The notes beneath the pieces were generated by a model, which was not told the origin of the DNA, searched no databases, and worked only from the letters and a program-made list of their open reading frames with translations. The position numbers and the translations under genes are program-made. Source: a virus. From it: 52,841 nucleotides of DNA. Shown piece by piece: positions 1-52,841 of the stretch (positions are counted from its first letter, which is position 1; each line of letters opens with the position of its first letter). The stretch spans positions 1 to 52,841 of IMG/VR virus record IMGVR_UViG_3300022188_000015. One strand, given 5' to 3'.

Positions 1-142
1 TCCGAAAGCTCAACATAACTATCTTTTCTTCCATCAAGAAGATTTTGTAAATCATCAATTTTACTAGACCAGTCCACCCATGAGCTGCCGTCCCAGTATT
101 CAGCAGAAACAATCGTCTTTCCCTGGAAGACATCGCTCCACT
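1..142. repeat. Terminal direct repeat, left copy (circle closure)
   Basis: Bases 1-142 are repeated at 52700-52841 with one difference, A at 127 against C at 52826. Both copies lie inside one open frame that continues across the join. The simplest reading is that the contig is a circular or circularly permuted genome of about 52,699 bp with an assembly overlap. A true 142-bp terminal repeat is less likely because it would sit inside a coding sequence. Confidence 0.9.
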
Positions 143-14965: not shown

Positions 14966-15193
14966 TCATTTTTGAGGACCACGTTTTTCTCGGGGTTCAA
15001 GATTTTGCCGTACCCATTCACGGTCACGATATGGGCTATACTGATATAAGGGGCACGAATAACCCTTACAATCAATTCGCGATTCTTCCAAGCCATTGCA
15101 TTGATAGCACATAGCTAACATGGCCTCTTTTCGAGTTAAGCCTTTGCCTTTCTTAAACTTTGCATATTCTAGTTGTCCTTTTATTTGTCCCAT
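14966..15193 (-). CDS. Small phage zinc-binding protein (75 aa)
   Basis: Pattern MCYQCNGLEESRIDC, then KGYSCPLYQYSPYRD: the CxxCxG...DC...CPLY...PYR arrangement is shared by small conserved phage proteins and forms a zinc site. Three bases before it is the preceding gene. Function not established. A second frame (14896-15096) overlaps and is rejected. Confidence 0.7.
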   Translation of the reverse strand: MGQIKGQLEYAKFKKGKGLTRKEAMLAMCYQCNGLEESRIDCKGYSCPLYQYSPYRDREWVRQNLEPREKRGPQK

Positions 15194-15195
15194 CT

Positions 15196-15618
15196 TTACC
15201 TCCTCTTAGGGTAAGCCCTAAACCACATTCTAGGCACTTCAATCGGCTCTCGCTGTTGCCATGTGTCACCGGGTGCATATTCATACACTCTAAACCACCA
15301 TCGCTTTTTCCTGGAATCCGAGGGGTCTTCTGTCTGGACTAGCTGCAACAGCAGGATCGTATCAGCCCCGCACCAGGGGTATTCCTCGAGTTTACGCCGT
15401 CGCCTTCGGGCAGCTTCGGCCCCGCCTGCTGTAACCTGAATCCAAACATAGGTTCCGTCTAGTTTCTTCCCGAGCACATCGCAACCAAAGAGGTCCTGGT
15501 ACTGCCATTTGGTACGCACAGCCCGAATGGTATGAATACATCCTTCGATCTCATGCGCATACCATTCAGCGGCTCGTTCTGCCTCTGCTCTTTTAGTTCT
15601 AGGATTTTGTTTTGGCAT
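15196..15618 (-). CDS. Restriction-like nuclease-fold candidate (140 aa)
   Basis: An N-terminal helix with ERAAEWYAHEIEG, then VRTKWQYQDLFGCDVLGKKL and TYVWIQVTAGG resembles the PD-(D/E)XK core (E in the helix, D in GCDV, then strand IQVT). The usual E-x-K is Q-x-T here, so either a variant active site or an inactive fold. Position after SSB and HNH and next to the array locus makes a resolvase-like role possible. Moderate support. Confidence 0.55.
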   Translation of the reverse strand: MPKQNPRTKRAEAERAAEWYAHEIEGCIHTIRAVRTKWQYQDLFGCDVLGKKLDGTYVWIQVTAGGAEAARRRRRKLEEYPWCGADTILLLQLVQTEDPSDSRKKRWWFRVYEYAPGDTWQQREPIEVPRMWFRAYPKRR

Positions 15619-15639
15619 GGTAGCCGCGCACCCTCCTTG

Positions 15640-15920
15640 TGGGTTTCATGTGTTTGTTTGGCTCGCACCTTCCTAGTGGGTGTCACGTGTTTTTTGGCTC
15701 GCAACAATATATTGGGTTTCATAGTTTAATTGGCTCACATTTTAGTTATGGGTTGCACCTATAGCGTGGCTCGCATATACATTCTGGGCTTCAATTCGTT
15801 ATTTGGCTCGCACTCTCTTAATGGATTTCATTAATAAATTGGCTCGCATTTGTGATATGGGTTCCACCACTGTTCTGGCTCGCACATCTATCATGGGTTC
15901 CGTTTAACAAATGGCTCTCA
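15640..15920 (-). repeat. Array 1: TIGR-like tandem interspaced repeat, 8 units
   Basis: Plus-strand words TGGCTCGCA (A) and TGGGTTTCA (B) alternate with variable spacers. A words start at 15659, 15695, 15731, 15767, 15804, 15840, 15876 and 15912 (the last degenerate); B words start at 15640, 15677, 15713, 15749, 15785, 15822, 15858 and 15894. Spacers are 9 nt except two of 10 (15649-15658 and 15794-15803). The unit is 36 bp (two words plus two 9-nt spacers). On the minus strand, the direction of the neighbouring genes, the words read TGCGAGCCA and TGAAACCCA. A decayed A word may exist near 15622. Matches TIGR array architecture; not a CRISPR array because repeats are far too short. Confidence 0.88.
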
Positions 15921-16694
15921 CTGCCAAACTTCGTAAGGCACGCCTTTACCCTTCTTAAACCAATCTGCCCACAATGCCTCTTGTGGTGCAATATAATCCT
16001 GATGCCCGCCATGCTCAATCACCCAGGGCTTGGTTATCGGCAAGCCATCTAATTCCCGCCACCGCACCCACAGGTGGCTAAGGAATATCTTCACCGCATA
16101 GCGTCTAGCCATATTATGGATATGACCATCCGTATACATGTACACAGTCTTGCCTTTTTTTGTCTTGAGTGGCACTTTCTCAGGGTATTTTTCTTTGTAA
16201 TATAGCTTCTTTGAATCGTACAAGGCCCGATAAAAGCACCGCTCAGGCTTTTGTTTAATAAAGCTATCCCCGATCTTAAAACATGTCATCCTTAAAAACG
16301 GGTCCCAGTTGATTTTCTTGCCTCGCTCTCTTCGAGGCGCACGGCCATTGACAACGTGCATACCACAGTATTTCCAAAGACTGGATATATAACGAAACCG
16401 TCCTATATCCACTATCCCCGCGATAAGTGATCCTGCCAAGCAGGGGCCTATACCCTTGACTTTTTTAAAGAATTCTTCCCAAACAGGAATGCCCTTCAGT
16501 AACCCCTCAATCTCTTTCTTAGTTTTCTGCTCTACCTTGGACAACACTTCGTCCATCCAGAAATGCAATGCTTCTGCCTGCTCAGTGGTTAACCTGCCGT
16601 CTTTTACGTATGCTTTTATGCGTAATTGGGTTTGGATTCTTTGCTTTTGTAAAGAGTAATAAGTCTCTGTTTTTATTTTTAATTCCTCAATCAT
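15918..16694 (-). CDS. Tas-like protein (TasA type): IS110-family C-terminal/Nop-like domain (258 aa)
   Basis: N-terminal coiled coil (about residues 1-75), then KGIGPCLAGSLIAGIVDIGRF (80-100) and SLWKYCGM (105-112), the helix-hairpin-helix hallmark of the IS110/IS116 Transposase_20 domain, then a basic region (118-130) and ARRYAVKIFLSHLWVRWREL. The IS110 DEDD RuvC-like catalytic half is absent, and no nuclease motif is visible. Arrays of 36-bp units lie on both sides, and its stop codon is inside the last repeat of array 1. Published Tas proteins share this Nop-like relation to IS110, with or without a fused RuvC (TasR) or HNH (TasH). ATG at 16694 follows AAAGGAG. Confidence 0.78.
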   Translation of the reverse strand: MIEELKIKTETYYSLQKQRIQTQLRIKAYVKDGRLTTEQAEALHFWMDEVLSKVEQKTKKEIEGLLKGIPVWEEFFKKVKGIGPCLAGSLIAGIVDIGRFRYISSLWKYCGMHVVNGRAPRRERGKKINWDPFLRMTCFKIGDSFIKQKPERCFYRALYDSKKLYYKEKYPEKVPLKTKKGKTVYMYTDGHIHNMARRYAVKIFLSHLWVRWRELDGLPITKPWVIEHGGHQDYIAPQEALWADWFKKGKGVPYEVWQ

Positions 16695-16715
16695 GCCTTC
16701 TCCTTTCTGCGCTAG

Positions 16716-16960
16716 AGGGTTACATGAATCGCTTGGCTCGCAAAAACAACGTGGTTTTCATCCTTTTCTTGGCTCGCATTTGGGGGCTGGTTTCCATTTC
16801 TCTCATGACTCGCACATATTTTTCTGGTGTCCACAGTGTCCTATGGCTCGCACTTGTGCGATGGTTTCCAGAGATAGTATGGCTCGCAACGTATCAGTGG
16901 TTTGCATTTTGCCCGTGGCTCGCAATTCACCATTGGGTTACAGGTATTAATTGGCTTCCT
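16716..16960 (-). repeat. Array 2: TIGR-like tandem interspaced repeat, 7 units
   Basis: A words start at 16734, 16770, 16806 (TGACTCGCA), 16844, 16880, 16916 and 16952 (decayed TGGCTTCCT). B words start at 16716 (AGGGTTACA), 16752, 16788, 16825, 16862, 16898 and 16934. Most B words here read TGGTTTCCA or close variants, unlike TGGGTTTCA in array 1. Spacers are 9 nt except 16815-16824 and 16834-16843 (10 nt). The last unit overlaps the end of the 98-residue gene. It lies between that gene and the ribosome site of the Tas-like gene. Confidence 0.88.
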
Positions 16961-17243
16961 CGTCTCTATCCCGGATGTTCCATCCTTCACGCCTCAGCTC
17001 TGCTTCGCTCCAATTACGATGCTCTTTCACCAAATACCGCTCTGGTCCACGCTCACCAGGCCTTTCCCATACTTCGTATGGCACATCCCTTTTTTTAAAG
17101 AATTCCGCCCAGTTCTCAATTATCCAGTATTGTGATCGAGGGCAGCCCCTCACATATTCAGCCGTTTTCTTGTCTTTAAGTGATCCATATTTTTCGATCA
17201 ACCTCATGTCAAAAAACCTCCCTAATTTTTTGTTGTTTGCCAT
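16947..17243 (-). CDS. Array-associated small protein (98 aa)
   Basis: Basic N-terminus (MANNKKLGRFFDMRLIEKYG) and charged C-terminus. Its WAEFFKKRDVPYEVWERPG closely resembles the C-terminal ADWFKKGKGVPYEVW of the neighbouring Tas-like protein, so the two may share a module. No clear ribosome site precedes the ATG, and the C-terminal codons run into array 2. Could be a genuine accessory gene or a remnant of a second Tas gene. Confidence 0.5.
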   Translation of the reverse strand: MANNKKLGRFFDMRLIEKYGSLKDKKTAEYVRGCPRSQYWIIENWAEFFKKRDVPYEVWERPGERGPERYLVKEHRNWSEAELRREGWNIRDRDEEAN

Positions 17244-17246
17244 GCT

Positions 17247-17296
17247 CTGCCTAGCTAAGCCCCGCCTCGCCCTGCCTAGCCAAGCCGAGCCACGCC
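17247..17296 (-). repeat. 25-bp tandem repeat of GCC-rich pentamers
   Basis: CTGCCTAGC[T/C]AAGCC begins two 25-bp units at 17247 and 17272, each made of five-base blocks ending in GCC. It lies immediately upstream (in the minus direction) of the 98-residue gene. Confidence 0.7.
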
Positions 17297-17312
17297 ATTT
17301 ACTAAAATCTTC

Positions 17313-17762
17313 TTACCTCCTTTCGGTTAGAGATACTTCATAAGCTTTTTTACCATGCCTTTCTAAATGATGTTTTCTGCACAACCAAGTCACTTTTAAT
17401 GGCTTATTATAATCTTCATGATGAGCCTCAACAAATGGGCTGCCACAAATTTCACAAACGCCCCTCTTTAATTTCCCATCTCTTATTGCGTTATTCGTGA
17501 TAATATGTGCTCTATATTTCTCTACATTCTTTTTTCTTCTTCTCCTTTGGTATTCAATAGCTTTCTGCCTTCTTTCTAGCTTCCTAGAGCGTTCCCTTTC
17601 ATATCCTGCATAATATGCTCGTCTTTTTTGGTAATTTTGTTTTACATCCTGTTTCGTACATTCCTTGCATTTATTGAGATGTCCATCCCCCATCTTTGGA
17701 TGCTTATAAAATTCTGTAATAGGTTTTTCTTGCCCGCATTTAAAACAAACCTTTATCTTCAT
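17313..17762 (-). CDS. HNH endonuclease (149 aa)
   Basis: The C-terminus has CEICGSPFVEAHHEDYNKPL then VTWLCRKHHLERHG, a full HNH ββα-metal motif (H-H, N, H-H with a structural CxxC). The N-terminus has a second zinc site (CFKCGQEK and CKECTK) and a long basic linker. This is the size of a homing-type or DNA-repair HNH nuclease. It lies two genes before the Tas-like gene; a stand-alone HNH near a nuclease-less Tas is worth noting, though coincidence is possible. Follows SSB. Confidence 0.85.
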   Translation of the reverse strand: MKIKVCFKCGQEKPITEFYKHPKMGDGHLNKCKECTKQDVKQNYQKRRAYYAGYERERSRKLERRQKAIEYQRRRRKKNVEKYRAHIITNNAIRDGKLKRGVCEICGSPFVEAHHEDYNKPLKVTWLCRKHHLERHGKKAYEVSLTERR

Positions 17763-17780
17763 TTCTATCTAACCCTCCGA

Positions 17781-18167
17781 TCAAAAAGGTATTTCCGAGT
17801 CATCGTCATATTCATCACCTCCTTCAGCAGCGGTCGGCTGCTCTTGCTTTCGCTGATACACTGGCTTGCTCACCTGATACGCTGTGAGTTCCCAACTTTC
17901 CCGTCCTTGACCTTCCTTGTCCGTCCACTTACGCGATCGGTACGGCCCCTCAACCTGGATAGCATCGCCTTTTTTGAAATTATCCGCCACCGCTTCTGCC
18001 AGATCACCCCATACCACCACTCTGTGCCACTGTGTCTGTCGGTTCTCTTTTTTGCCGTATGCCTCGGCAAGGGAAAACGTACAAACCGCTGTGCCGTTTG
18101 GGGTGTAGCGCAAATTAGGGTCTTGACCGAGGTGGCCGGATAGTATGCAGTTATTTTTATTGGGCAT
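17781..18167 (-). CDS. ssb: Single-stranded DNA-binding protein (128 aa)
   Basis: OB-fold SSB: MPNKNNCILSGHLGQDPNLRYT, then QTQWHRVVVWGDLAEAVADNF and KKGDAIQVEGPYRSRKWTD. The acidic disordered tail ends in DDDSEIPF, the SSB interaction tip. AGGGAGG precedes ATG at 18167. Coats single strands during replication and recombination and recruits partners through its tip. Sits between the loader and HNH genes. Confidence 0.95.
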   Translation of the reverse strand: MPNKNNCILSGHLGQDPNLRYTPNGTAVCTFSLAEAYGKKENRQTQWHRVVVWGDLAEAVADNFKKGDAIQVEGPYRSRKWTDKEGQGRESWELTAYQVSKPVYQRKQEQPTAAEGGDEYDDDSEIPF

Positions 18168-18178
18168 TATTTACCTCC

Positions 18179-18760
18179 CTAAAACGGAATTTCACTTTCA
18201 TCTATGAGTCCCCATTCCTTTCTCACTTGTCCGGCAATCTTTTCTTTCGCCACAATAGCTTGTAGATCCCTAAATCGCTGTGCTATCTGTTCATCAGTGA
18301 GACCCGTATAACATTGTCTACATTGCCATCGGCCGGCTTCGTAGATACATAGCGCTATTTTTCCGCATTTTTGGCATCGAATATTCGGCTCAATCCTAGG
18401 TGAGCGTTCTATTTCCATCAGGTCCGGCTTGATTTTCGGTCTCGGGATCGACAAAGGCATCTTGGCTCTACAGTATTTGCATTCCCCGTCAATCAGTAGG
18501 CTTACATGAGCACCGCATTTAGGGCAGGTAAACCGGTCTCGTAAATTGGTTACGTCCAGGAATTTTTTGAGATCCGCCGGTTTCGGGAAATACTCCAGCT
18601 CGTCTATAGCTTTATAACCTGCTTTGCGCACTTCATCGTCACTATATTTGCGTAATGCTTGATAATACGCCTCTGTCATCACTGCTGAATCAGTGTTCTT
18701 TCTAGGCCAGATGCTCAGAAAAAGCTCAATCATGCTTTTAATAATCTTCTTGCTCGCCAT
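18179..18760 (-). CDS. Helicase-loader-like zinc-ribbon replication protein (193 aa)
   Basis: The N-terminus (ALRKYSDDEVRKAGYKAI, then FPKPADLKKF) resembles phage replicative helicase loaders of the lambda P / DnaC-support group. Two zinc ribbons follow (CPKCGAH...CKYCRAK and CQKCGK...CRQCYTG). The last residues are DESEIPF, matching the tip of the adjacent SSB. ATG at 18760 follows CCGGAGG. The gene overlaps the end of the initiator gene. Confidence 0.6.
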   Translation of the reverse strand: MASKKIIKSMIELFLSIWPRKNTDSAVMTEAYYQALRKYSDDEVRKAGYKAIDELEYFPKPADLKKFLDVTNLRDRFTCPKCGAHVSLLIDGECKYCRAKMPLSIPRPKIKPDLMEIERSPRIEPNIRCQKCGKIALCIYEAGRWQCRQCYTGLTDEQIAQRFRDLQAIVAKEKIAGQVRKEWGLIDESEIPF

Positions 18761-19526
18761 CTTCTTCAACCTCCGGAAAAAGGAATATGTTTTTTTTGAC
18801 ATCGTTTTGAGGGATCTCAATCTCGTCTTCCCACCTACCTTGATTTAACCAAGTAGTTGGATGAGGAATAAACCGCCCATTTTCCCGTGTCCACGCCTCT
18901 GAACGTTTTTGTTTCTCAATAATTTGGATTAACTCATCTAAGGGAGGCAATTCTTTCTTTACTCTTTTCCAGCTACGAAAAGCTGCTTTTTTAGCCTTTT
19001 TAACAGGATAAGCATTCCAAAACTTCTCAAAATCTTGCGGGTAAGTGGAAGATTTTTTGTTACCATTTTGGGTAACAGGCGCACATATATTACTGTCTTT
19101 TGTATTATTGTCTTTTGTATTATTGTCTTTTGTGGGTACCTTTTTTGGTAACAACGCTTTACCATTTTTGGTAACACTCGTTACCATTTTTGGTAATGTT
19201 ACCTTTTTTGGTAATACCTTCCAAGACTCAAAATCCTTATTGATTTCGTATACATGCGGCCCTTTGTTACCATTTTTGGTAATACGTATTACCTTTTTTG
19301 ATAACAACTCATTGAGCGCTCGAACAACATGTGGTTTAACAATTCCAGTCATTTCAACAAATTGGCTAAGAGAGATTGCATCAGCTTTCTTGTTATAGCC
19401 ATATGTTTTGCGGATTATAACATCAAGACACTGCCTCTGTTCGCCAGGTAAACGATACCTGATTAGAGCATCAAAAAGCTTATTTGCTATTTTTACATAA
19501 CCATTTTCAATTTGAGGCGAGGCCAT
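18738..19526 (-). CDS. Replication initiator, lambda O-like (262 aa)
   Basis: The N-terminal winged-helix (MASPQIENGYVKIANKLFDA, then GEQRQCLDVIIRKTYGYNKK, LSQFVEMTGIVKPHVVRALNEL) is the phage replication protein O family that binds origin iterons. The middle (about residues 85-160) is low-complexity and encoded by the iterons at 19059-19305. The C-terminus (FEKFWNAYPVKKAKKAAF) matches the domain that meets helicase loaders. A loader-like gene follows. The start is ATG 19526; ribosome site weak. Confidence 0.85.
   Translation of the reverse strand: MASPQIENGYVKIANKLFDALIRYRLPGEQRQCLDVIIRKTYGYNKKADAISLSQFVEMTGIVKPHVVRALNELLSKKVIRITKNGNKGPHVYEINKDFESWKVLPKKVTLPKMVTSVTKNGKALLPKKVPTKDNNTKDNNTKDSNICAPVTQNGNKKSSTYPQDFEKFWNAYPVKKAKKAAFRSWKRVKKELPPLDELIQIIEKQKRSEAWTRENGRFIPHPTTWLNQGRWEDEIEIPQNDVKKNIFLFPEVEEDGEQEDY
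19059..19305. other. Candidate replication origin: seven iterons inside the initiator gene
   Basis: Seven near-copies of GTTACC[A/T]TTTTTGGTAAY at 19059-19076, 19136-19152, 19158-19175, 19180-19197, 19198-19215, 19266-19283 and 19288-19305. Each is an imperfect palindrome (TTACC...GGTAA). Spacing in clusters is about 18-23 bp, near two helical turns. A further TGTCTTTTGTATTAT repeat (three 15-bp units, 19094-19136) sits between. Lambda's O gene carries ori iterons in the same place, so this is the origin by analogy. Confidence 0.8.
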
Positions 19527-19584
19527 TCTTGTCACGCACTTGTTTAAGAGTTAACTTTTGCATTGGGCAGCATCCTAGAAAGAA

Positions 19585-19667
19585 AAACCCCAGAGCGGCC
19601 TAATCGCCACGGAGTAAGGTGGGATTCTAGTCACGGCTTGTTATAGCCTACTAGATCTCTGGGGTTT
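19585..19667 (-). ncRNA. Structured RNA / terminator with three-way junction
   Basis: AAACCCCAGAG (19585-19595) pairs with CTCTGGGGTTT (19657-19667), an 11-bp closing stem. Between, on the minus strand, CTAGT-GGCT...AGCC-ACTAG forms a nested hairpin and CCAC...GTGG another, so a three-way junction is possible. A T-run follows in the minus direction. It sits between the zinc-finger gene and the initiator. It may be an attenuator or a small RNA; no known riboswitch class recognised. Confidence 0.6.
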
Positions 19668-19726
19668 AGCTTTTAGGCGGTTTATCAAATTCCGACCTCC
19701 GCAACAATTAGGCTGCTTTCACTATA

Positions 19727-20428
19727 TCATTTTTCCTCATTTTTGTCAACCCCAACAATGCCGTCCGCCTCAAGCCCCTCCACTATGTAGGCAAGGGCCT
19801 GCATGTCGGGGCTTCTAAAGGATCGCCTAGCTGCCTTTTCTAGCCTTTCTCTGAGCTGTAGCTTTTCGCAAATAGCTTTATCGAATACAAGCTTTACCTT
19901 GCCATTCCTGCGCCTACGTGCAGGTTTTTTGATTGCGCCACCACTTTCCCTTTGCTGGTAGCTTTTCGCCACACGCTTGCCCAGGCACTCAGGGCAGCAA
20001 TTTCTTACCGTTATAGCGCCTCTGACGTACGGCTCGAATTCTTTTCCGCAATCCTGGCATATACTTACTTCTTTTTTCTCATTCATTTCTCTAATTTTCC
20101 TTCCTATCTCTTTGTTTTTATTATAATACCATTGGGCATAATGGCGCTTGCACATACCCTTGACCTTGGCTGCTTCATTGCAGCCGTCCACCTTGCAGAC
20201 GCCTAGCGGCTTGCTAGGCTTAGTTCCCTGCAGGCTTGCTATCTTCGCTTGCCACTCAGTGCAATTTTCGCACTCTCGTGGCATGACAGGGACCGAGACA
20301 GATAGGTTTAGCGTTTCGTCAAACCTTGGCCGTTTCCGCAACGCCTCGCATTGTTGTGGTGATACTCGGCCAAGGGCACACTGGAAGGTATTGGCTTCGA
20401 GCCATTGGTCAGCCTGTTCTTTCTTCAT
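19727..20428 (-). CDS. Zinc-finger protein of the early leftward operon (233 aa)
   Basis: Several cysteine clusters: CENCTEW, CKVDGCNEAAKVKGMCKRHYAQW (a C-C-C-H type zinc unit), then CQDCGKEF and CCPECLGK. A basic segment (KKPARRRRNGKVK) follows, then a helical C-terminus. Start ATG 20428 is 5-6 bases after TTAGGAG. Second gene of the repressor operon. Probably nucleic-acid binding; specific role unknown. Confidence 0.7.
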   Translation of the reverse strand: MKKEQADQWLEANTFQCALGRVSPQQCEALRKRPRFDETLNLSVSVPVMPRECENCTEWQAKIASLQGTKPSKPLGVCKVDGCNEAAKVKGMCKRHYAQWYYNKNKEIGRKIREMNEKKEVSICQDCGKEFEPYVRGAITVRNCCPECLGKRVAKSYQQRESGGAIKKPARRRRNGKVKLVFDKAICEKLQLRERLEKAARRSFRSPDMQALAYIVEGLEADGIVGVDKNEEK

Positions 20429-20436
20429 TTGCACTC

Positions 20437-20631
20437 CTAAACCAAAAGATCTTTAGGGTCCAGATCAAGGGCCTTGGCAATAAGATTAACCGTCTTCAAG
20501 CTCACTCTATCAGCCCGCTTGTAATAAGCGTAGATCGCCGTGCGTGGCTTGTTCATGGCTTTTGCCAAGTCCTCTTTTGTCCAACCCAACCTCTTTAACT
20601 CTTTTTCGATTTTTGCCTTATTCAACTTCAT
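20437..20631 (-). CDS. XRE-family repressor (64 aa), probably leaderless
   Basis: A single helix-turn-helix (MKLNKAKIEKELKRLGWT, KEDLAKAMNKPRTAIYAYYKR, VSLKTVNLIAKALDLDP) of the XRE type. The promoter TATAAT ends 7 bases before ATG 20631, so transcription should start at the ATG, as in lambda cI from PRM. Its position, divergent from the early promoter, suggests it controls the genetic switch. It is only one domain, without a dimerisation C-terminus. Confidence 0.85.
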   Translation of the reverse strand: MKLNKAKIEKELKRLGWTKEDLAKAMNKPRTAIYAYYKRADRVSLKTVNLIAKALDLDPKDLLV

Positions 20632-20638
20632 GGGGCGC

Positions 20639-20667
20639 ATTATACTTACTTTTCGCTTGTCCGTCAA
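20639..20667 (-). promoter_or_regulatory. Repressor promoter (consensus, leftward)
   Basis: Minus strand TTGACG (20667-20662), 17-base spacer, TATAAT (20644-20639). Seven bases then lead to ATG 20631. Confidence 0.85.
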
Positions 20668-20743
20668 GCAAATTCGACTATCAGCTAAGTTATTGATATT
20701 CTTAGTATGAGCAAAAAAGTGACAAGCCCGTGTCTTTTTTTAG

Positions 20744-20772
20744 TTGACACCGCTCCGCCCTTATGCTATGCT
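20744..20772 (+). promoter_or_regulatory. Early rightward promoter
   Basis: TTGACA (20744-20749), 17-base spacer, TATGCT (20767-20772). Transcription would start near 20780 and run through a roughly 470-base structured leader to the first clear gene at 21255. The leader holds GGGAGGTGAT (20881-20890) with a possible 29-codon GTG frame at 20886-20975, and a 9-codon frame at 21151-21180 after AAAGGAGG. Confidence 0.8.
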
Positions 20773-20979
20773 CCCCCCAAACTCTGGCCCATGCGTGATC
20801 GGGTGCCGGTTCAAAAAAGACGGTATGGGAATGACAGGCAGGACACGGTGGGCCGGATGGCAAGTTTTAGGTTCTTAGAAGGGAGGTGATACCCGTTCCA
20901 AATCGTTCAGATTGGAAATATGAGTTGTTTTGGGTGGTTGGTTGGGTGATGCGGAGGGATGGAAAAGGTCTTTGAAATT

Positions 20980-21103
20980 GCTGGCAGCGGACTGGTGGGA
21001 TGGCACCGACAGTCATAGGGAACAAACCTTCCATGGCCGGAAACTCGGAAATGAGTAGCCGGCTATCATCAAACGGTAGCGGGTTCGATTCCCGCCTGCC
21101 AGC
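20980..21103 (+). ncRNA. tRNA-like structured RNA in the early leader
   Basis: GCTGGCAG (20980-20987) pairs with CTGCCAGC (21096-21103) as an acceptor-like stem. Inside is GACTG...CAGTC with GGTG/CACC (D-arm-like), GGAA/TTCC (small hairpin), GCCGG...CCGGC with ACTC/GAGT (long variable-arm-like), and a canonical T-arm GCGGG-TTCGATT-CCCGC (21079-21095). No valid anticodon loop is evident and the total is 124 nt, so it is not a normal tRNA; it may be a mimic or a decayed tRNA. Confidence 0.45.
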
Positions 21104-21108
21104 ACACA

Positions 21109-21231
21109 GCCTGCGTTGCGGGCTTTGAATCTCAAGAGAAAGGAGGATCCATGGGAGGCAATTTCGTGGTGGCAGGATAACCGGCTATATAGACGGTGTG
21201 GCCCCGAGCCCTTCTTGGATAAACTCGGGGC
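21109..21231 (+). promoter_or_regulatory. Early leader hairpins and a 9-codon peptide frame
   Basis: GCCTGC-GTT-GCGGGC (21109-21123), then AAAGGAGG with ATG 21151 and TAA 21178-21180 (MGGNFVVAG), then an 8-bp stem GCCCCGAG/CTCGGGGC (21201-21231). A strong ribosome site, short peptide and hairpin in order suggest an attenuator-like leader. Function is inferred. Confidence 0.4.
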
Positions 21232-21254
21232 GATAAAAAGATAAGGAGGTAATA

Positions 21255-21359
21255 ATGTTACGTTGCCCAGCTTGCGGTTATTGGGATTTTGATGGGACTC
21301 AGTGTTGGGCTTGTGGTTATCGTGTATCAAATCCATGGCCTTGGTTTCTTATATGGTAA
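21255..21359 (+). CDS. Tiny zinc-ribbon protein (34 aa)
   Basis: MLRCPACGYW then CWACGYRVSN forms a CxxC...CxxC zinc ribbon followed by a Trp-rich tail (WPWFLIW). AAGGAGG lies 6 bases before the ATG. First clear gene of the early rightward operon. Too short for conventional annotation, yet the cysteine spacing and ribosome site are convincing. Confidence 0.65.
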   Translation: MLRCPACGYWDFDGTQCWACGYRVSNPWPWFLIW

Positions 21360-21425
21360 AAAATAGACGCCCTAGCCCGTGGCTGCTTTAGGCGAAAACG
21401 GGGCATATAAAAAAGGGATATTTAC

Positions 21426-21791
21426 ATGGCTAAAGAAAAAGAAAAAAGTAATGTAATAATGGCACAAGACGTAACAAATTTTAAACTAGAGTTATTTCAG
21501 AGGCTAGAAAAGTCTTTGACCCCAAAAGACTGGTTTGATGCTGTGGTATACGGTAAAGAACCCACTTTGACCACCATCGTGGTGTCTGTAATAATTCCAC
21601 AGCAGGTGTTATACATAATTCAGAAATGTAGAGTTGATATACCAGACGATGTTACGGTTTTAGGTGTGGGTACTCTATTTTCGGAGTTTGTAGCTATGGG
21701 CTACAATCAAGCTGTCCATAACCCAGATTTTGAGACGTTTTTACGTCAGCAATGGGAACATGCGCAAGGGACTTTTAAATCTTTACATTAA
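21426..21791 (+). CDS. Unknown early protein (121 aa)
   Basis: Begins MAKEKEKSNVIMAQDVTNF, with a hydrophobic middle (TLTTIVVSVIIPQQVLYIIQ) and an aromatic C-terminus. Position in the early operon suggests host takeover or regulation. No family recognised. ATG 21426 has only a weak site (AAAAAGGGA). Confidence 0.6.
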   Translation: MAKEKEKSNVIMAQDVTNFKLELFQRLEKSLTPKDWFDAVVYGKEPTLTTIVVSVIIPQQVLYIIQKCRVDIPDDVTVLGVGTLFSEFVAMGYNQAVHNPDFETFLRQQWEHAQGTFKSLH

Positions 21792-21819
21792 GGTGCTTAT
21801 TGGGTTAAAGGAGATAGTT

Positions 21820-21993
21820 ATGCGACCCGACAAGATAATCGACAACGCCCCGCCCTATCTCTACCAGATCGAACACCACAAGCCCAAGCCGAAATGGGCA
21901 TGGCGAGCCTTCTGGTGGGGATTTTGGTGGGGAGTAATTTTTGCGCTTCCCTTTGGTTACATTTGGGCATGGGGAGCAGGGAGAGGCATATGA
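21820..21993 (+). CDS. Small Trp-rich membrane protein (57 aa)
   Basis: PPYLYQIEHHKPKPK precedes a Trp-rich membrane segment (WAWRAFWWGFWWGVIFALPF) that continues to WAWGAGRGI. AAAGGAG precedes ATG 21820. The stop TGA overlaps the next ATG (ATGA). Probable inner-membrane protein of unknown role. Confidence 0.6.
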   Translation: MRPDKIIDNAPPYLYQIEHHKPKPKWAWRAFWWGFWWGVIFALPFGYIWAWGAGRGI

Positions 21994-22403
21994 AACCAGT
22001 TGATCAAACTAAATTCGGGTTTGAGGATGGAAATTGTGGGGCTGCTTGTATAGCAAGTATTTTGGAAATCCCACTAGAAAGTATTCCAAACTTTCATGGA
22101 GAAGACCCTTCTGATCCTAAATTATATTGGAAAAATGTGAGAAAATGGTGCGCAGATAAACCTTTCATACTTATAAGCATCTCAATATCTGAAGGTTATG
22201 ACCCAAAAGAATTTCTAAAAGATTGTTGGGTAATTGCATCAGGTCCTTCACCTAGAGGAACAAAAGAATGGCATCGCCACGCTGTGGTCTGGCGAAATGG
22301 CGAGATTGTTCATGACCCTCACCCTTCTAGGGAAGGATTGAAAGAAATAGATATGTATGATCTGTTTATCATAAAAGATCCTAGTTTAGTAGGGAGGTTC
22401 TAA
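21990..22403 (+). CDS. Papain-like cysteine peptidase-fold protein (137 aa)
   Basis: DGNCGAACIASIL (Cys16), HAVVWRNGEIVHDPHP (His97, Asp109) gives the Cys-His-Asp triad spacing of C39-like or transglutaminase-like peptidases. This early gene might process or cut a host protein or serve as an anti-defence factor; substrate unknown. The start at 21990 is coupled to the upstream stop. The longer open frame to 21894 is a shadow of the preceding gene. Confidence 0.6.
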   Translation: MKPVDQTKFGFEDGNCGAACIASILEIPLESIPNFHGEDPSDPKLYWKNVRKWCADKPFILISISISEGYDPKEFLKDCWVIASGPSPRGTKEWHRHAVVWRNGEIVHDPHPSREGLKEIDMYDLFIIKDPSLVGRF

Positions 22404-22404
22404 C

Positions 22405-22635
22405 ATGCTACACGATAGCGATTTCAACATGCGTAAGCAGTTTTACGAGGCAAGCAAAAAGAGTGCGCAACTTCGTGACCTCGGCTATGCCAACGGCTGG
22501 GCAGACACGCCTGATATAGTCAAGGCGTGCCGAGCAAAAGGGCATGTTCCTGAAAAAATAAACAAGGGAAGATGCTTAAACGAATACAGGTGCTTGGATT
22601 GCGGGTATAAATACCTTGTGGATTCGAGCGGGTAG
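22405..22635 (+). CDS. Small protein with C-terminal zinc ribbon (76 aa)
   Basis: Starts MLHDSDFNMRKQFYEA after GGGAGG. A Cys near the middle (CRAKGHV) and the C-terminal CLNEYRCLDCGYKYLVD suggest a zinc site. Just after the peptidase-like gene. No known family. Confidence 0.6.
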   Translation: MLHDSDFNMRKQFYEASKKSAQLRDLGYANGWADTPDIVKACRAKGHVPEKINKGRCLNEYRCLDCGYKYLVDSSG

Positions 22636-22652
22636 GAAGCGAGGGGATTAAA

Positions 22653-23465
22653 ATGGTAGAAGCTATTCACCAAAGCACTTTGAATATGGCTCTTCGTTGC
22701 GGGGAGCAGTTCCGTAGGCGCTACATTGAAGGCGAAATTATCCCGCCTTCCATTGCTGCGGGGCGTGGAACTGCCGTTCACAAAGCAAACGAAGTCAACC
22801 TTAAACATAAAGTGGTCAAACAAGAGGATCTGCCCCTTGAAGACCTTCAGGATGCTGCGAGGGACGCTTACGTCCACACCTTTAGTAATGGTGTTTATAT
22901 CCCAAAAAAAGATTTACCAGCAAAAAATAGGTTGCTCAATGATGGTTTGAATGATGCTATCCGATGCACCAAGGTCTATCGGAGAGAAGTGGCTCCGCAT
23001 ATAAAACCTATTTCAATTGAACAACCTTTTCAAATTGACGTAGGACTTGAATTGCCTTTAGCCGGAAGGATGGATTACCAAGAAGAGCCAGTGGTAGGTG
23101 ATCTTAAAACAGCAAGTATGAAGTGGCAAAAAGACAGAATCAATAGAGAGATCCAGCCTGCTTTTTATTCTTTTGTGCATGAACAAGAGCGGGGTATTAG
23201 GCCGTTATTTCGCTACCATGTATTAATAGCTAGACGGAACAAAGAGGGGCAGCCTACAAGCGAAGAATACCAACCATTGGAATATACGCCTTCGGAAAAA
23301 GATTATAAGGCGCTTTTCGCTAAGCTTCAGCTTTTTATCCAGATGCTGAAGTCTGGTGTTTTCCCACCGGCTAACCCTACCGCTTGGTGGTGTAGCGAGC
23401 GATTTTGCGGTTACTGGTATACGTGTCCTTATGTTGGAAATAATTTGCCTAAAAAATGGTTTTAA
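22653..23465 (+). CDS. Cas4/RecB-like PD-(D/E)XK nuclease with Fe-S cysteines (270 aa)
   Basis: The core has GRMDYQEEPVVGDLKTAS (residues 138-155; D141, D150, K152) and QPAFYSF (168-174), the RecB-nuclease motif set. One Cys near the start (LRCGEQF, 16) and three near the end (WCSERFCGYWYTC) match the Fe-S cluster of Cas4/AddB-type enzymes. It is followed by a recombination-associated gene, so they likely act as a phage exonuclease plus annealing pair. Confidence 0.8.
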   Translation: MVEAIHQSTLNMALRCGEQFRRRYIEGEIIPPSIAAGRGTAVHKANEVNLKHKVVKQEDLPLEDLQDAARDAYVHTFSNGVYIPKKDLPAKNRLLNDGLNDAIRCTKVYRREVAPHIKPISIEQPFQIDVGLELPLAGRMDYQEEPVVGDLKTASMKWQKDRINREIQPAFYSFVHEQERGIRPLFRYHVLIARRNKEGQPTSEEYQPLEYTPSEKDYKALFAKLQLFIQMLKSGVFPPANPTAWWCSERFCGYWYTCPYVGNNLPKKWF

Positions 23466-23477
23466 AGGAGGAAACCC

Positions 23478-24776
23478 ATGGAAGAAAAGAAAACATTAGA
23501 GCCTGAAATCCTAGACGGAATCAAACCTTTTTCCGGTTTACCTGATGAAATGTCGGCAGGAGAAAAAATGTTGATCGAAGGGAAATCCCTTCAAAAAATC
23601 CAAACTACCTATACTACAGCTATTGCAGTCCAAAAGCCCAGATCAATTGCTCGAGTAGCCCATAATGTTCTTGAAGAAGCAAAGCTAGCAGGCGCTAGCT
23701 TTTATTACGGATGGACCGCAAAGACCAAAAATGGCCCTGTACGGATAGAAGGGCCGAGCATTGATCTAGCTATGTGTCTTGCTAGACATTATGGAAATTG
23801 TGCTATTGACATAGAGGGTACGGAAACACCTACTCATTTTATGTTGAAGGGTATTTTTATTGACTTGGAAAGCGGTTTTACTTGCCCTCGACTGTTCCGC
23901 CAGAGAAAAACCCAAAGCCTTGGCGGGAAGATGGAAAAAGACGCTGATAGGCAAGAAGACATTGTATTCCAAATCGGCCAATCAAAAGCAATTAGAAACG
24001 CGATTATTAGAGCGATGCCTGCATGGTTGATTGAGCAAGCTATTGAGATGGCTAAACAAGCAGAGCTAGGAAAAATCAAACCTGAAAACATTCATCTGGC
24101 ACGCACTAGGGTTTTAAATTTCTTCGCCCCTTACGGTATAACACCTGAGAGAATAGAGGCGAAAATGGGCCGTAAAGTAGATGACTGGACAGCACAAGAT
24201 ATTGTGGATTTACGTGGTATGGCGACAGCTTTGAAAGAAGGCCGGGTTTCGGCTGAAGAATTGTTTCCGCCAATACCCATGGAAGAGAATCAAGAGCAGC
24301 CTAAAGAAGAACCTGTAAAAGACACAAAGCAGCAAGACGAGGCCAAGCCCCAACCCCAAGAACCGTCAAAAGACGCTGAGATCGACCCCTTCCGCAAGGA
24401 ATACATCAACCTGCGCTCAAGCGGATTCTCAACATGGGCATACAAAAACCTAGAGCGAATTAAACAAGCAGACCCTGAGCATCAGGAAGAAATCAGGGCA
24501 AAGTGGGAAAAGCTGTATAAAGACGTTAAGTTCCCGCTTGATCCCGAGCCAAACGGTGAAACAAACGAAGAGCCTGTTGAGCAGGAAGAAACACCGCAAC
24601 AAAATGGTAATAATAGTGGCGCTGCTACAGTATTCTGCCCGGTTAAGCAGTCTAGGGTGTTTCTTTCTGTCTGCGAGACCAAGTGTGACAAGAAAGAGAA
24701 TTGCGTAGCGTATCGAGAGGCCGTGATGTTGCTGGAGGCCGAAGAGGTAGAGAAAGAAGAAAATCAGGGGGTGTAA
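23478..24776 (+). CDS. Phage recombination-associated protein family (432 aa)
   Basis: An N-terminal conserved segment (SIARVAHNVLEEAKLAGASF, then EGPSIDLAMCLARHYGN, SGFTCPRLFRQRKTQSLGG, and FQIGQSKAIRNAIIRAMP) matches a phage family usually found beside Cas4-like or RecB-like exonucleases and thought to act as a single-strand annealing or DNA-binding partner. The C-terminal third is Glu/Gln/Pro-rich and ends with a Cys cluster (CPVKQSRVFLSVCETKCDKKENC). AAAGGAGG precedes ATG 23478. Confidence 0.6.
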   Translation: MEEKKTLEPEILDGIKPFSGLPDEMSAGEKMLIEGKSLQKIQTTYTTAIAVQKPRSIARVAHNVLEEAKLAGASFYYGWTAKTKNGPVRIEGPSIDLAMCLARHYGNCAIDIEGTETPTHFMLKGIFIDLESGFTCPRLFRQRKTQSLGGKMEKDADRQEDIVFQIGQSKAIRNAIIRAMPAWLIEQAIEMAKQAELGKIKPENIHLARTRVLNFFAPYGITPERIEAKMGRKVDDWTAQDIVDLRGMATALKEGRVSAEELFPPIPMEENQEQPKEEPVKDTKQQDEAKPQPQEPSKDAEIDPFRKEYINLRSSGFSTWAYKNLERIKQADPEHQEEIRAKWEKLYKDVKFPLDPEPNGETNEEPVEQEETPQQNGNNSGAATVFCPVKQSRVFLSVCETKCDKKENCVAYREAVMLLEAEEVEKEENQGV

Positions 24777-24778
24777 AA

Positions 24779-25093
24779 ATGAACCTATTAATTGGCATAT
24801 TGATAGCGATTTGGTTAGTTGCTTTCTACTTAGGGGTGAGAAATGAGGTGGCATTTCGGATAACTGGGCGAGCGCTTGATATGGCTTCTACCTTGGCAAG
24901 ACATGCTATGACGCAAGACGATCCTGATTGGGATCGCTATTATCGTATGTATGGCAAAAAATCCTATAATCAAATTGTGCTCAGCTTTTGCTGGACGGTA
25001 AAAAAGGCGTATCCCGAACTGTACCGAGAATATAAAGCGCTTTTAGAGAATACAAAAGCGGAGGATAAAGGAAATGAAATCCCCAAGAAATAA
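24779..25093 (+). CDS. Small membrane-anchored protein (104 aa)
   Basis: An N-terminal hydrophobic helix (MNLLIGILIAIWLVAFYLG) is followed by a soluble, charged domain. Start ATG 24779 lies three bases after the preceding stop; the longer frame to 24701 is unsupported. It overlaps the next gene by 20 bases. Probably inner-membrane; role unknown. Confidence 0.6.
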   Translation: MNLLIGILIAIWLVAFYLGVRNEVAFRITGRALDMASTLARHAMTQDDPDWDRYYRMYGKKSYNQIVLSFCWTVKKAYPELYREYKALLENTKAEDKGNEIPKK

Positions 25094-25334
25094 AAAGCTA
25101 ACCATTGACGAGGAATGGTATCAATCTCAAATCCCTCATTTTTGCAAGTATCGTACTGTGCAGGAGCATATAAACTATCTAATGGGGTGTTGGTCTTTAT
25201 TTTTGGGAAGAGTTGGAAGAGCAAACATCGGAGATGTTGAAGGCCCCCATTTTTGCCATAATTGCGACCTTTCAGTACGGACAAAAAGATGGGACAAAAA
25301 ATGGCATGAGAAATTTTTGAAGAAGGAGGCGTAA
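25074..25334 (+). CDS. Unknown small protein (86 aa)
   Basis: Begins MKSPRNKKLTIDEEWYQ, has HFCKYRTV and later HFCHNCDLSV, a possible Cys/His metal site. Overlaps its upstream neighbour by 20 bases and is preceded by AAAGGA. Early operon; no family recognised. Confidence 0.55.
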   Translation: MKSPRNKKLTIDEEWYQSQIPHFCKYRTVQEHINYLMGCWSLFLGRVGRANIGDVEGPHFCHNCDLSVRTKRWDKKWHEKFLKKEA

Positions 25335-25337
25335 GCT

Positions 25338-25529
25338 ATGAGTTTCTTTGTAGGCATTCTTACAGGCTTGGTTATTGCCTTTATCGTGGGGCAATTTGCC
25401 TTAAAAAAGGGCTACAAGGATTCCAACGATGAGCTAATCAAGTTCTGGAAGGAGCGAAACGAGCAAGGGCAAGAGATAGTTGATGCGCTTTGGGAAATAC
25501 GGAAAGCTTTGATTGATTTAAGGAGATAG
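25338..25529 (+). CDS. Small membrane protein (63 aa)
   Basis: One N-terminal membrane helix (MSFFVGILTGLVIAFIVGQFAL) followed by a charged coiled coil (NDELIKFWKERNEQGQEI). AAGGAGG precedes. A typical small phage membrane protein of unknown role. Confidence 0.6.
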   Translation: MSFFVGILTGLVIAFIVGQFALKKGYKDSNDELIKFWKERNEQGQEIVDALWEIRKALIDLRR

Positions 25530-25548
25530 TAAAAAGGAGGGAATACAA

Positions 25549-25728
25549 ATGCGACAAGCCTTAGGTGGCTGGGAATTAGGGTTGACCCCGGAAAACATCA
25601 GTGGCTACTCCCCTGAACAGGTTCAGGGGCTTCTAGGGATTGAACCCAGAGACTGTAGCCCCAGTCTCAAAATATTAATAGCGGCATTAACATCTCTGTT
25701 AAGCGAAAGACCACACACAGGACAATGA
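25549..25728 (+). pseudogene. 5' remnant of an early gene interrupted by the TnpB element
   Basis: AAAAAGGAGGG and ATG 25549 start an apparent coding frame (MRQALGGWELGLTPENISGY) that runs into the right end of the element near 25610 and continues only by chance to 25728. On the far side, the frame QLEAIKGKKGEI ends with TAA 26886-26888 overlapping the ATG of the next gene, as other early genes do. The element therefore seems to have split one small gene. Confidence 0.5.
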
Positions 25729-25760
25729 TAGACACGGTCATCCAAGTTAAGTTTGTGCCT
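25608..25760 (-). ncRNA. Probable omega (reRNA) guide scaffold region of TnpB
   Basis: In this family the guide RNA comes from the 3' end of tnpB and the right end, with the guide supplied by the flank beyond. The expected place is the last ~130 bases of tnpB plus the right-end hairpin here. Region assigned by family knowledge, not by a fold. Confidence 0.45.
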
Positions 25761-26741
25761 ATTACCACACCGACTGCATGTTTGAGATGTGTAGGCAGGG
25801 TTAATTTCAATACAGTGAGACCCAGCCCATTCTGCCTTGTATCTCACGCAGTTCAGAAATTGACCCCACGCTACGTCTCCTATACTTCTGTTGATACTGC
25901 GGAAATTACCTTGTCGCATGTCATTGATAGACAAGTCTTCAACGACAATAGTGTTAAACCGATTAACAAGCTTGCGAGCCTGTTGGTGCGCAAAATCGTG
26001 GCGTTTCCAGTTGATTCTTTCATGAATACGGGCCACTACTTTACGGGCCTTTTCTCTAGCTTTAGAACCTTTTTCTTGCAGAGAAAGCTTTCGCTGTGCT
26101 TTTGCAAGAGCTTTTTGTTCCTGTTTAAAAAACCTGGGGTTTTGAATCTGTTCGCCGTTAGACAAAGTTGCGAAAGATTCAAGCCCCATATCAATGCCAA
26201 TGGCTGGTTCAATAGGTTTTTTGGTAGGATTATGGTCAACTTCACAGACAAAAGTCACAAACCATTTGCCAGTTGGGGTACGTTTGATAGCGCAAGTTTT
26301 TATTTTGCCTTGGATAGGTCGATGAAGTTTGATTTTAACGTCACCAATCTTGGAAAGTTTGACAGTTTTCTCAAAAAGCTTAAAACCACTTTGAGGATAA
26401 GTGAAGCTATTGTAATGGGATTTACTTTTAAATCTCGGATAGCCAGGTTTTTCACCAGCTTTCAAGCGCCTAAAAAACGCCCTAAATGCAAGATCAAGGC
26501 GAACGGCAACTTCTTGGAGGCATTGACTGTAAGCATCATTGAGAAACTCGTATTCTTTTTTAAGCTTAGGAATAGAATTAACTTGATCGTAGCGAGAAAT
26601 GGATTTTTTCTCTTTTCCCCACGTTGTTTTACGTTCTTCAAGGAAATGATTGTAAAGCCAACGGCAGGCGTTAAGGACTTTATTCAGTTTTTTTACCTGG
26701 CTTTTGGTTGGGAAAATTCTATATTTGAAAGTTTTTTTCAT
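25623..26741 (-). CDS. tnpB: RNA-guided nuclease TnpB (372 aa)
   Basis: Full-length OrfB. RuvC residues are seen in GIDMGLESF (D184), VVEDLSINDM (E268) and LNRDVNAAINILR (D350). The zinc finger CSRCG...CPVCG has Cys322, 325, 340 and 343. N-terminal RNA-binding domain is intact (FPTKSQVKKLNKVLN). All catalytic residues are present, so it may be active. It runs against the early operon and carries its own end hairpins. Confidence 0.92.
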   Translation of the reverse strand: MKKTFKYRIFPTKSQVKKLNKVLNACRWLYNHFLEERKTTWGKEKKSISRYDQVNSIPKLKKEYEFLNDAYSQCLQEVAVRLDLAFRAFFRRLKAGEKPGYPRFKSKSHYNSFTYPQSGFKLFEKTVKLSKIGDVKIKLHRPIQGKIKTCAIKRTPTGKWFVTFVCEVDHNPTKKPIEPAIGIDMGLESFATLSNGEQIQNPRFFKQEQKALAKAQRKLSLQEKGSKAREKARKVVARIHERINWKRHDFAHQQARKLVNRFNTIVVEDLSINDMRQGNFRSINRSIGDVAWGQFLNCVRYKAEWAGSHCIEINPAYTSQTCSRCGNRHKLNLDDRVYHCPVCGLSLNRDVNAAINILRLGLQSLGSIPRSP

Positions 26742-51899: not shown

Positions 51900-52841
51900 G
51901 ACTATGAGGGACCTCCTTGCTTGTGCCTACCTTTCTAAACTTCCCAGTTAACGGGTCTAGCTCTACACCAGGCTTGATTTTGTATTTAGCCTTGGTTTTC
52001 TTTACCTTATATTGCTTAACTTCGCCAGTTTCTTCATCAAAGCAAAACTTGCTTTCTGTTTCAAACGTTGTAGTTATAGGGTTTGCCGTATCAAGCAATT
52101 CGCCTGATAATGACCTAAATTCGCCTTTTAACGGTAAAAAGAGTTCCATTGCCTGCGTTTCGCCGTTGAAAAACATGACTGCACCGCTTAATTTTTCAGG
52201 GGGGATTTCCTTTTTTACTTTAGCTACAATATCTTTTCGGGTTTGATAATCGTAAAGGACATACGGCGGGTCATTACCGCCATCACTCGTAAGCTTGCCA
52301 GTACAATGAATATCACCGGTGACATCTAAAGCATAAGACGGTGTAGAGTCTTTAATGCCCACATTGCCTTCCCAGTCCCAGTAAAGTGGCATCCCCCTGA
52401 AAACCCCTGTATGTAAGGCTGCCGAAAAACCACGCACCATATAAACAGCAATTGTCTCACCCGAAAAATCAAAATCAAATGTTAATCTCCAATACACCTC
52501 ATTGGCGTCATTAAGGTTTACGGGTAATATATGCGCTTGTACAGTAGAATAGCTTGCAGTCCCCCTCGTAGTCCAACTTGCTTGGTCGGCCGATGTTTCC
52601 ACTGTAAGGGTTAATGGCCGAGTCCAAGAGGATACCATAATAACACCCATAAGAAGATAAGCACCAGCATTAATAGTAATCCTAAACTTTTTATAAGTTT
52701 CCGAAAGCTCAACATAACTATCTTTTCTTCCATCAAGAAGATTTTGTAAATCATCAATTTTACTAGACCAGTCCACCCATGAGCTGCCGTCCCAGTATTC
52801 AGCAGAAACAATCGTCTTTCCCTGGCAGACATCGCTCCACT
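51877..52841 (-). CDS. Fibre/tail-like structural protein, C-terminal part (joins 1-449)
   Basis: The right-hand piece of the 423-residue gene, open at the right edge. The C-terminus has SYALDVTGDIHCTGKLTSDG, typical of tail-fibre or intramolecular-chaperone regions, then a Lys/Glu-rich tail (KYKIKPGVELDPLTGKFRKV). The 52826 C gives Cys where the left copy has Phe, at VF/CQGK. Ends 51877, overlapping the next gene by 23 bases. Confidence 0.85.
   Translation of the reverse strand, partial: WSDVCQGKTIVSAEYWDGSSWVDWSSKIDDLQNLLDGRKDSYVELSETYKKFRITINAGAYLLMGVIMVSSWTRPLTLTVETSADQASWTTRGTASYSTVQAHILPVNLNDANEVYWRLTFDFDFSGETIAVYMVRGFSAALHTGVFRGMPLYWDWEGNVGIKDSTPSYALDVTGDIHCTGKLTSDGGNDPPYVLYDYQTRKDIVAKVKKEIPPEKLSGAVMFFNGETQAMELFLPLKGEFRSLSGELLDTANPITTTFETESKFCFDEETGEVKQYKVKKTKAKYKIKPGVELDPLTGKFRKVGTSKEVPHSHAIEKIS
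52700..52841. repeat. Terminal direct repeat, right copy
   Basis: Matches bases 1-142 except at 52826. See the left copy. Confidence 0.9.

What the first reader, a model, noticed from the sequence alone, without database searches (positions are those of the whole stretch)
15640..16960. TIGR-Tas-like locus: two 36-bp-unit arrays flanking a nuclease-less IS110-related protein
Two arrays of alternating 9-bp words (TGGCTCGCA / TGGGTTTCA) with 9-nt variable spacers lie on both sides of a 258-residue protein with an IS110 C-terminal (helix-hairpin-helix, Nop-related) domain. The period of 36 bp with two 9-nt spacers per unit and a Nop-like effector is the architecture of TIGR-Tas RNA-guided systems, here in its TasA form in a phage. 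Spacer sequences are all different and not palindromic, as expected for guides.
Basis: partly seen in the sequence, partly recalled or inferred. Interest (0 to 1): 0.95.

Follow-up and report, generated by a model that had tools for sequence, protein, structure and literature searches.

The report
TIGR-TasA RNA-guided system in phage
A bacterial virus carries a compact, recently described type of RNA-guided DNA-binding system (TIGR-TasA), with about 15 two-part guides in two arrays around one small protein that has no cutting domain; it is a well-formed new example of a known kind, and what it targets is still unknown.

Summary
Two arrays (15622-15920 and 16707-16960) flank a 258-aa gene, all on the minus strand. 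On that strand the units read edge TGCGAGCCA, 9-nt spacer A, loop TGnAACCCA or TGnAAACCA, 9-nt spacer B, period 36. They are the two strongest 36-bp periodicities in the window. The protein matches solved TasR (1.5e-42) and TasH (3.7e-12), not IS110 transposases (alignment profile: TasR 1.2e-58, IS621 0.1). A confident fold model (pLDDT 88.7) has 11 Tas chains as its best PDB hits; no nuclease domain precedes the coiled coil. Of 84 loci examined (window included, near-duplicates not removed), 75 carry the same kind of array in the same orientation, and the edge repeat's box C/D pair covaries (A-T, G-C, G-T). So this is a TIGR-TasA locus as defined by Faure et al. 2025. New details: the module fills a variable slot between SSB and a 140-aa gene in the replication block; a relative (L120/L121) has other genes there. 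No other gene recurs next to tasA. Guides show no excess of matches to their own genome or to other viral DNA held. Function in vivo is inferred: guided, non-cleaving DNA binding, probably against other replicons.

The parts
15918..16694 (-). tasA: 258-aa Nop-domain protein without a nuclease domain (coiled coil, HhH core, C-terminal RNA-binding part, disordered 20-aa tail)
16707..16960 (-). TIGR array 2 (upstream of tasA): truncated first edge AGGAAGCCA at 16952-16960, 7 units, loop consensus TGnAAACCA; the last unit has loop TGTAACCCT and ends at the tasA ribosome-binding site
15622..15920 (-). TIGR array 1 (downstream of tasA): 8 units, loop consensus TGnAACCCA; ends in the divergent terminal edge TGCGCGGCT just before the ATG of the next gene
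15912..15920 (-). first edge repeat of array 1 (TGAGAGCCA); its TGA is the stop codon of tasA
15631..15639 (-). last spacer B of array 1 (CAAGGAGGG), which also looks like the Shine-Dalgarno sequence of the next gene; a relative has AAGGGAGGG upstream of the same gene
16947..17243 (-). 98-aa ORF just upstream of array 2; shares the WAxxFKK..VPYEVW motif with the TasA tail
   Evidence: (E 7e-6)
17313..17762 (-). HNH/endonuclease VII-like gene, part of the segment absent in the relative
15196..15618 (-). 140-aa gene bounding the module downstream; 80% identical in L120, where it follows SSB without any TIGR module
17781..18167 (-). SSB gene bounding the variable segment upstream

Best explanation
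This is a phage-borne TIGR-TasA locus of the dual-repeat type. A minus-strand transcript from the replication operon carries array 2, tasA and array 1. The precursor would be cut within the edge repeats to give roughly 36-nt tigRNAs (half edge, spacer A, loop, spacer B, half edge). A TasA dimer would hold each tigRNA by its UG (box D) and CCA (box C) motifs. It would bind DNA in which spacer A pairs with one strand and spacer B with the adjacent part of the other, opening and bending the DNA without cutting it. Shown here: array anatomy, box motifs and covariation, protein family and fold, lack of a nuclease, and strand conserved in relatives. Inferred by homology with published experiments on FpTasA (RNA binding) and on TaTasR and SpTasH (processing, guided DNA targeting): transcription, processing and guided DNA binding. 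Inferred only: the purpose, most likely blocking replication or expression of competing mobile elements or of host genes (about 45% for 'other replicons or host', against self-regulation or another role).
For: Periodicity and words. Sequence match to TasR/TasH (profile 1.2e-58 and 2.6e-36, next IS621 at 0.1). Fold model pLDDT 88.7, pTM 0.84, with 11 Tas chains as the only PDB hits at E <= 0.001. 75 of 84 loci have 36-bp dual-repeat arrays on the tas strand. Edge pair 2-7 is A-T 517, G-C 389, G-T 187, so about 93% of 1175 units are paired (1094 counting all standard pairs) against about 916 expected from base frequencies; pair 3-6 is C-G 1046, T-G 47, T-A 40; edge and loop boxes go together, TG..CCA with TG..CCA. 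The closest relatives L002/L003 (65% identity) have the same edge repeat and about 19 units with different spacers. No gene but tasA recurs widely in the neighbourhoods.
Against: No RNA data. No target was found: own genome, nine other tas-bearing viruses, relatives and two whole-collection pattern scans gave nothing above chance. No rho-independent terminator was seen after array 1 on the minus strand. The covariation counts treat related loci as independent.
Confidence: 0.94

Rival explanations
1. A TIGR-TasA locus whose guides regulate the phage's own genes or replication.
For: It lies in the replication module between SSB and a 140-aa gene, and array 2 forms the leader of tasA itself.
Against: Guides of ten tas-bearing viruses do not match their own genomes beyond the mismatched-pair control: in all 5 matches, each with two mismatches, against about 3.2. 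No hit in the window at 0-1 mismatch outside the arrays.
Confidence: 0.12
2. Decayed IS110 transposase remnant next to unrelated tandem repeats.
For: Pfam names the core Transposase_20.
Against: Closer to Tas than to IS110 by sequence and by fold. No DEDD catalytic domain, an intact frame, and the array is associated with the gene in 75 of 84 loci.
Confidence: 0.01
3. Iterons or protein-binding sites of the phage replication origin.
For: Direct repeats at 18-bp steps inside the replication module.
Against: Relatives with other neighbours keep related words, polarity and the 36-bp unit next to tas; 2-7 and 3-6 pairing in the edge repeat covaries as expected for tigRNA boxes.
Confidence: 0.02
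4. TIGR-TasA made into a nuclease in trans by a neighbouring protein (HNH gene 17313-17762 or the 140-aa gene).
For: The HNH/endonuclease VII-like gene sits in the same variable segment.
Against: Neither gene has a relative in the flanks of the other tas loci, and the 140-aa gene also occurs without tasA.
Confidence: 0.04

Closest known systems
TIGR-TasA, dual-repeat type (e.g. Flavonifractor plautii FpTIGR; Faure et al. 2025, PMC12045711)
   Different: Own repeat sequences; loop consensus differs between its two arrays; no terminator seen; 20-aa tail shared with the neighbouring 98-aa ORF
TaTasR (PDB 9mty) and TasH (PDB 9w04, 21kl; type example SpTasH of Salicola phage CGphi29)
   Same: Coiled coil plus Nop core; for TasR also the UG/CCA boxes and the extra pair in the edge repeat
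   Different: These carry N-terminal RuvC or HNH nucleases; the window protein has none
IS110/IS621 bridge-RNA recombinases
   Same: Distant Nop-like C-terminal half and guide-RNA use
   Different: DEDD domain, a single bridge RNA, mobile element ends; only distant similarity here (E 0.1 by sequence profile, 1.2e-3 by fold)

Membership tests
TIGR-Tas | Alternating 8-12-nt edge and loop repeats separated by two ~9-nt spacers, ~36-nt unit | tested here: met
TIGR-Tas | Adjacent Nop-domain Tas protein | tested here: met
TIGR-Tas | Box D (UG) and box C (CCA) at the ends of both repeats, on the tas strand | tested here: met
TIGR-Tas | Box C/D pair and extra pair in the edge repeat, with covariation | tested here: met
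   93% of edge units paired at 2-7 with three pair types; 3-6 C-G, T-G, T-A
TIGR-Tas | Arrays begin and end in truncated or divergent edge repeats | tested here: met
   AGGAAGCCA at 16952-16960; TGCGCGGCT at 15622-15630
TIGR-Tas | Rho-independent terminator after the array (typical in the paper, not defining) | tested here: inconclusive
   none seen on the minus strand by a simple scan; the array runs into the next gene
TIGR-Tas | Processing to ~36-nt tigRNAs | not testable with these tools
   needs RNA-seq
TIGR-Tas | Tandem-spacer RNA-guided DNA binding | not testable with these tools
   needs biochemistry; no natural target found
TasA subtype | No nuclease domain before the Nop part | tested here: met
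   258 aa; the match to TasR starts at TasR residue 114; the model begins with a long helix at residue 2, where the TasR match starts after its RuvC domain
IS110 transposase | N-terminal DEDD catalytic domain | tested here: not met
CRISPR-Cas | cas genes with 25-36-nt repeats and spacers of similar size | tested here: not met
   no PADLOC match for tasA or the four nearby genes scanned; repeats are 9 nt

The most novel reading that the evidence does not exclude
TIGR-TasA is a swappable cassette of phage replication modules: a nuclease-free RNA-guided roadblock that silences or stalls competing phages, with its guides replaced quickly between relatives. That would assign a biological role to TasA, which is still open.
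Probability: 0.25. Interest if true: 0.8.

Novelty: new member of a known kind. Interest (0 to 1): 0.42.

Why it matters
TasA is described as the commonest Tas type, and its role is less clear than that of the nucleases; natural targets, the origin of the spacers and the biological role are open questions (PMC12045711). This is an intact example on a nearly whole phage contig. Relatives in IMG/VR include one with a different array and one with other genes in the same slot, which makes comparative and laboratory tests possible.

Tried and rejected
Self-targets in the window: nothing above chance. 924 unique guides against 457 kb of viral DNA, both geometries, gaps 0-6, with re-paired controls: no excess. 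The one recurrent match there (a guide of L042 against five homologous contigs, one mismatch, gap 1) counts as a single event and is within chance. Exact pattern scans of IMG/VR for guides 2.2 and 1.2 gave one and zero hits; the single hit lies in an AT-rich, mostly unrelated phage contig and is chance-level. Self-targets in ten viruses: no excess. Guides against the relative lacking TIGR, and L002 guides against the window: none. A partner gene next to tasA: not conserved. Near-identical phage DNA for 15001-26000: none in the phage collection. Plasmids: no relative. Rfam: no match. Cellular genomes: only six distant relatives, all in metagenome-assembled genomes, so the host could not be named.

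Full report
OBSERVATION. The window is a 52,841-base virus record. A 126-bp direct repeat near its two ends (1-126 and 52700-52825) suggests a nearly whole phage genome. Two arrays flank the minus-strand ORF 15918-16694. Read on that strand, the units are edge TGCGAGCCA, spacer A (9), loop, spacer B (9), with period 36 and a few 37-38. These are the two highest 36-bp periodicities of the window, above all random controls. Array 2 (16707-16960) lies upstream of the gene and has 7 units; array 1 (15622-15920) lies downstream and has 8. All spacers differ. The stop codon of the gene is the TGA of the first edge repeat of array 1, and both arrays end at the ribosome-binding site of the next gene, so the last spacer B of each may not be a real guide.

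PROTEIN. The 258-aa protein hits the TasR structure 9mty at 1.5e-42 and TasH at 3.7e-12. A profile of 24 relatives hits TasR at 1.2e-58, TasH at 2.6e-36 and the IS621 transposase only at 0.1. The fold model (pLDDT 88.7, pTM 0.84) matches 11 Tas chains at E <= 5e-7, then IS110-type recombinases at about 1e-3 and Nop5 weakly. The match starts after the nuclease domain of TasR, and the model begins with a long helix, read as the coiled coil: this is the TasA form. The last 20 residues are mostly of very low confidence in the model, probably disordered, and resemble a segment of the neighbouring 98-aa ORF.

RELATIVES. Two IMG/VR contigs (L002, L003) carry a 65% identical TasA after about 19 units with the same edge repeat and other spacers. 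A wider search gave 80 loci. Of 84 loci examined, counting the window and not removing near-duplicates, 75 have 36-bp dual-repeat arrays, all on the strand of the tas gene. Over 1175 units the edge repeat pairs position 2 with 7 as A-T (517), G-C (389) or G-T (187), in all 1094 paired against about 916 expected from base frequencies, and position 3 with 6 as C-G, T-G or T-A; the loop pairs 2-7 as G-C but not 3-6. These correspond to the box C/D pair and the edge-specific extra pair described for tigRNAs (PMC12045711). Many related loci share some guides and differ in others, so guides turn over.

CONTEXT. The genes upstream on the same strand are an endonuclease VII/HNH-like gene, SSB and a replication O-like gene. 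In a relative (L120/L121, 82-85% DNA identity in the flanks) the same order SSB ... 140-aa gene has other small ORFs in place of HNH, the 98-aa ORF, the arrays and tasA, and no tas gene was found on that contig. The module thus fills a variable slot. No gene other than tasA recurs widely among the 26 tas neighbourhoods compared; the next clusters span three loci at most.

TARGETS. From the published cleavage rule (cut 5' of the nucleotide pairing with spacer base 5, 8-nt 3' overhangs) I derive the target as spacer A followed by the reverse complement of spacer B on one strand; both geometries were searched. There is no excess over re-paired controls in the window, in ten tas-bearing viruses, in the held viral DNA, or in the relatives. 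This weakens self-regulation but does not show what is targeted.

MECHANISM. Transcript, processing at the edge repeats, a TasA dimer with one tigRNA, and bipartite DNA pairing with a strong bend and no cleavage follow from published work (36-nt RNAs bound by FpTasA, TaTasR and SpTasH; targeting and structure for the nuclease types; PMC12045711) and are inferred here. The role, most likely interference with other replicons or the host, is inference.

VERDICT. A well-supported new member of a known kind, TIGR-TasA. The membership features that could be tested are met, except that no terminator was seen, which the paper calls typical rather than universal. What would be new is a target or a role, and neither was found.

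Noticed in passing
window 25623-26741 (-): TnpB/Cas12f-like protein of 372 aa (PADLOC Cas12f 1.3e-65) with apparently intact RuvC motifs by eye: a second RNA-guided protein type in the same phage.
   Followed up: partly
window 15919-15975 and 16947-17243 (-): The TasA C-terminal tail (WADWFKKGKGVPYEVWQ) resembles a segment of the adjacent 98-aa ORF (WAEFFKKRDVPYEVWE), E 7e-6; possible duplication or fusion when the module formed.
   Followed up: partly
L120/L121 1671-2982: A relative phage from the same sample as L002 has SSB and the 140-aa gene but other small ORFs between them: an alternative occupant of the TIGR slot.
   Followed up: yes
L007 3180-3560 and 5020-5055: Within one virus, spacer A ATGATTCTA occurs three times with three different spacers B (read): half-guides seem to be duplicated or re-paired independently.
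   Followed up: no
window 1-126 and 52700-52825: 126-bp direct repeat near the two ends, suggesting a complete or circularly permuted phage genome.
   Followed up: partly
window 19088-19220: Short tandem repeats (15-, 22- and 18-bp units) inside the replication O-like gene, possibly the replication origin.
   Followed up: no
window 22653-23465 (+): Weak Cas4-like match (PADLOC 1.6e-4), probably a phage recombination exonuclease-like protein rather than CRISPR.
   Followed up: no
L042 3491 against L076, L078, L079, L080, L082: One guide matches a homologous site in five related virus contigs with one mismatch and gap 1; within chance overall but worth a test.
   Followed up: partly
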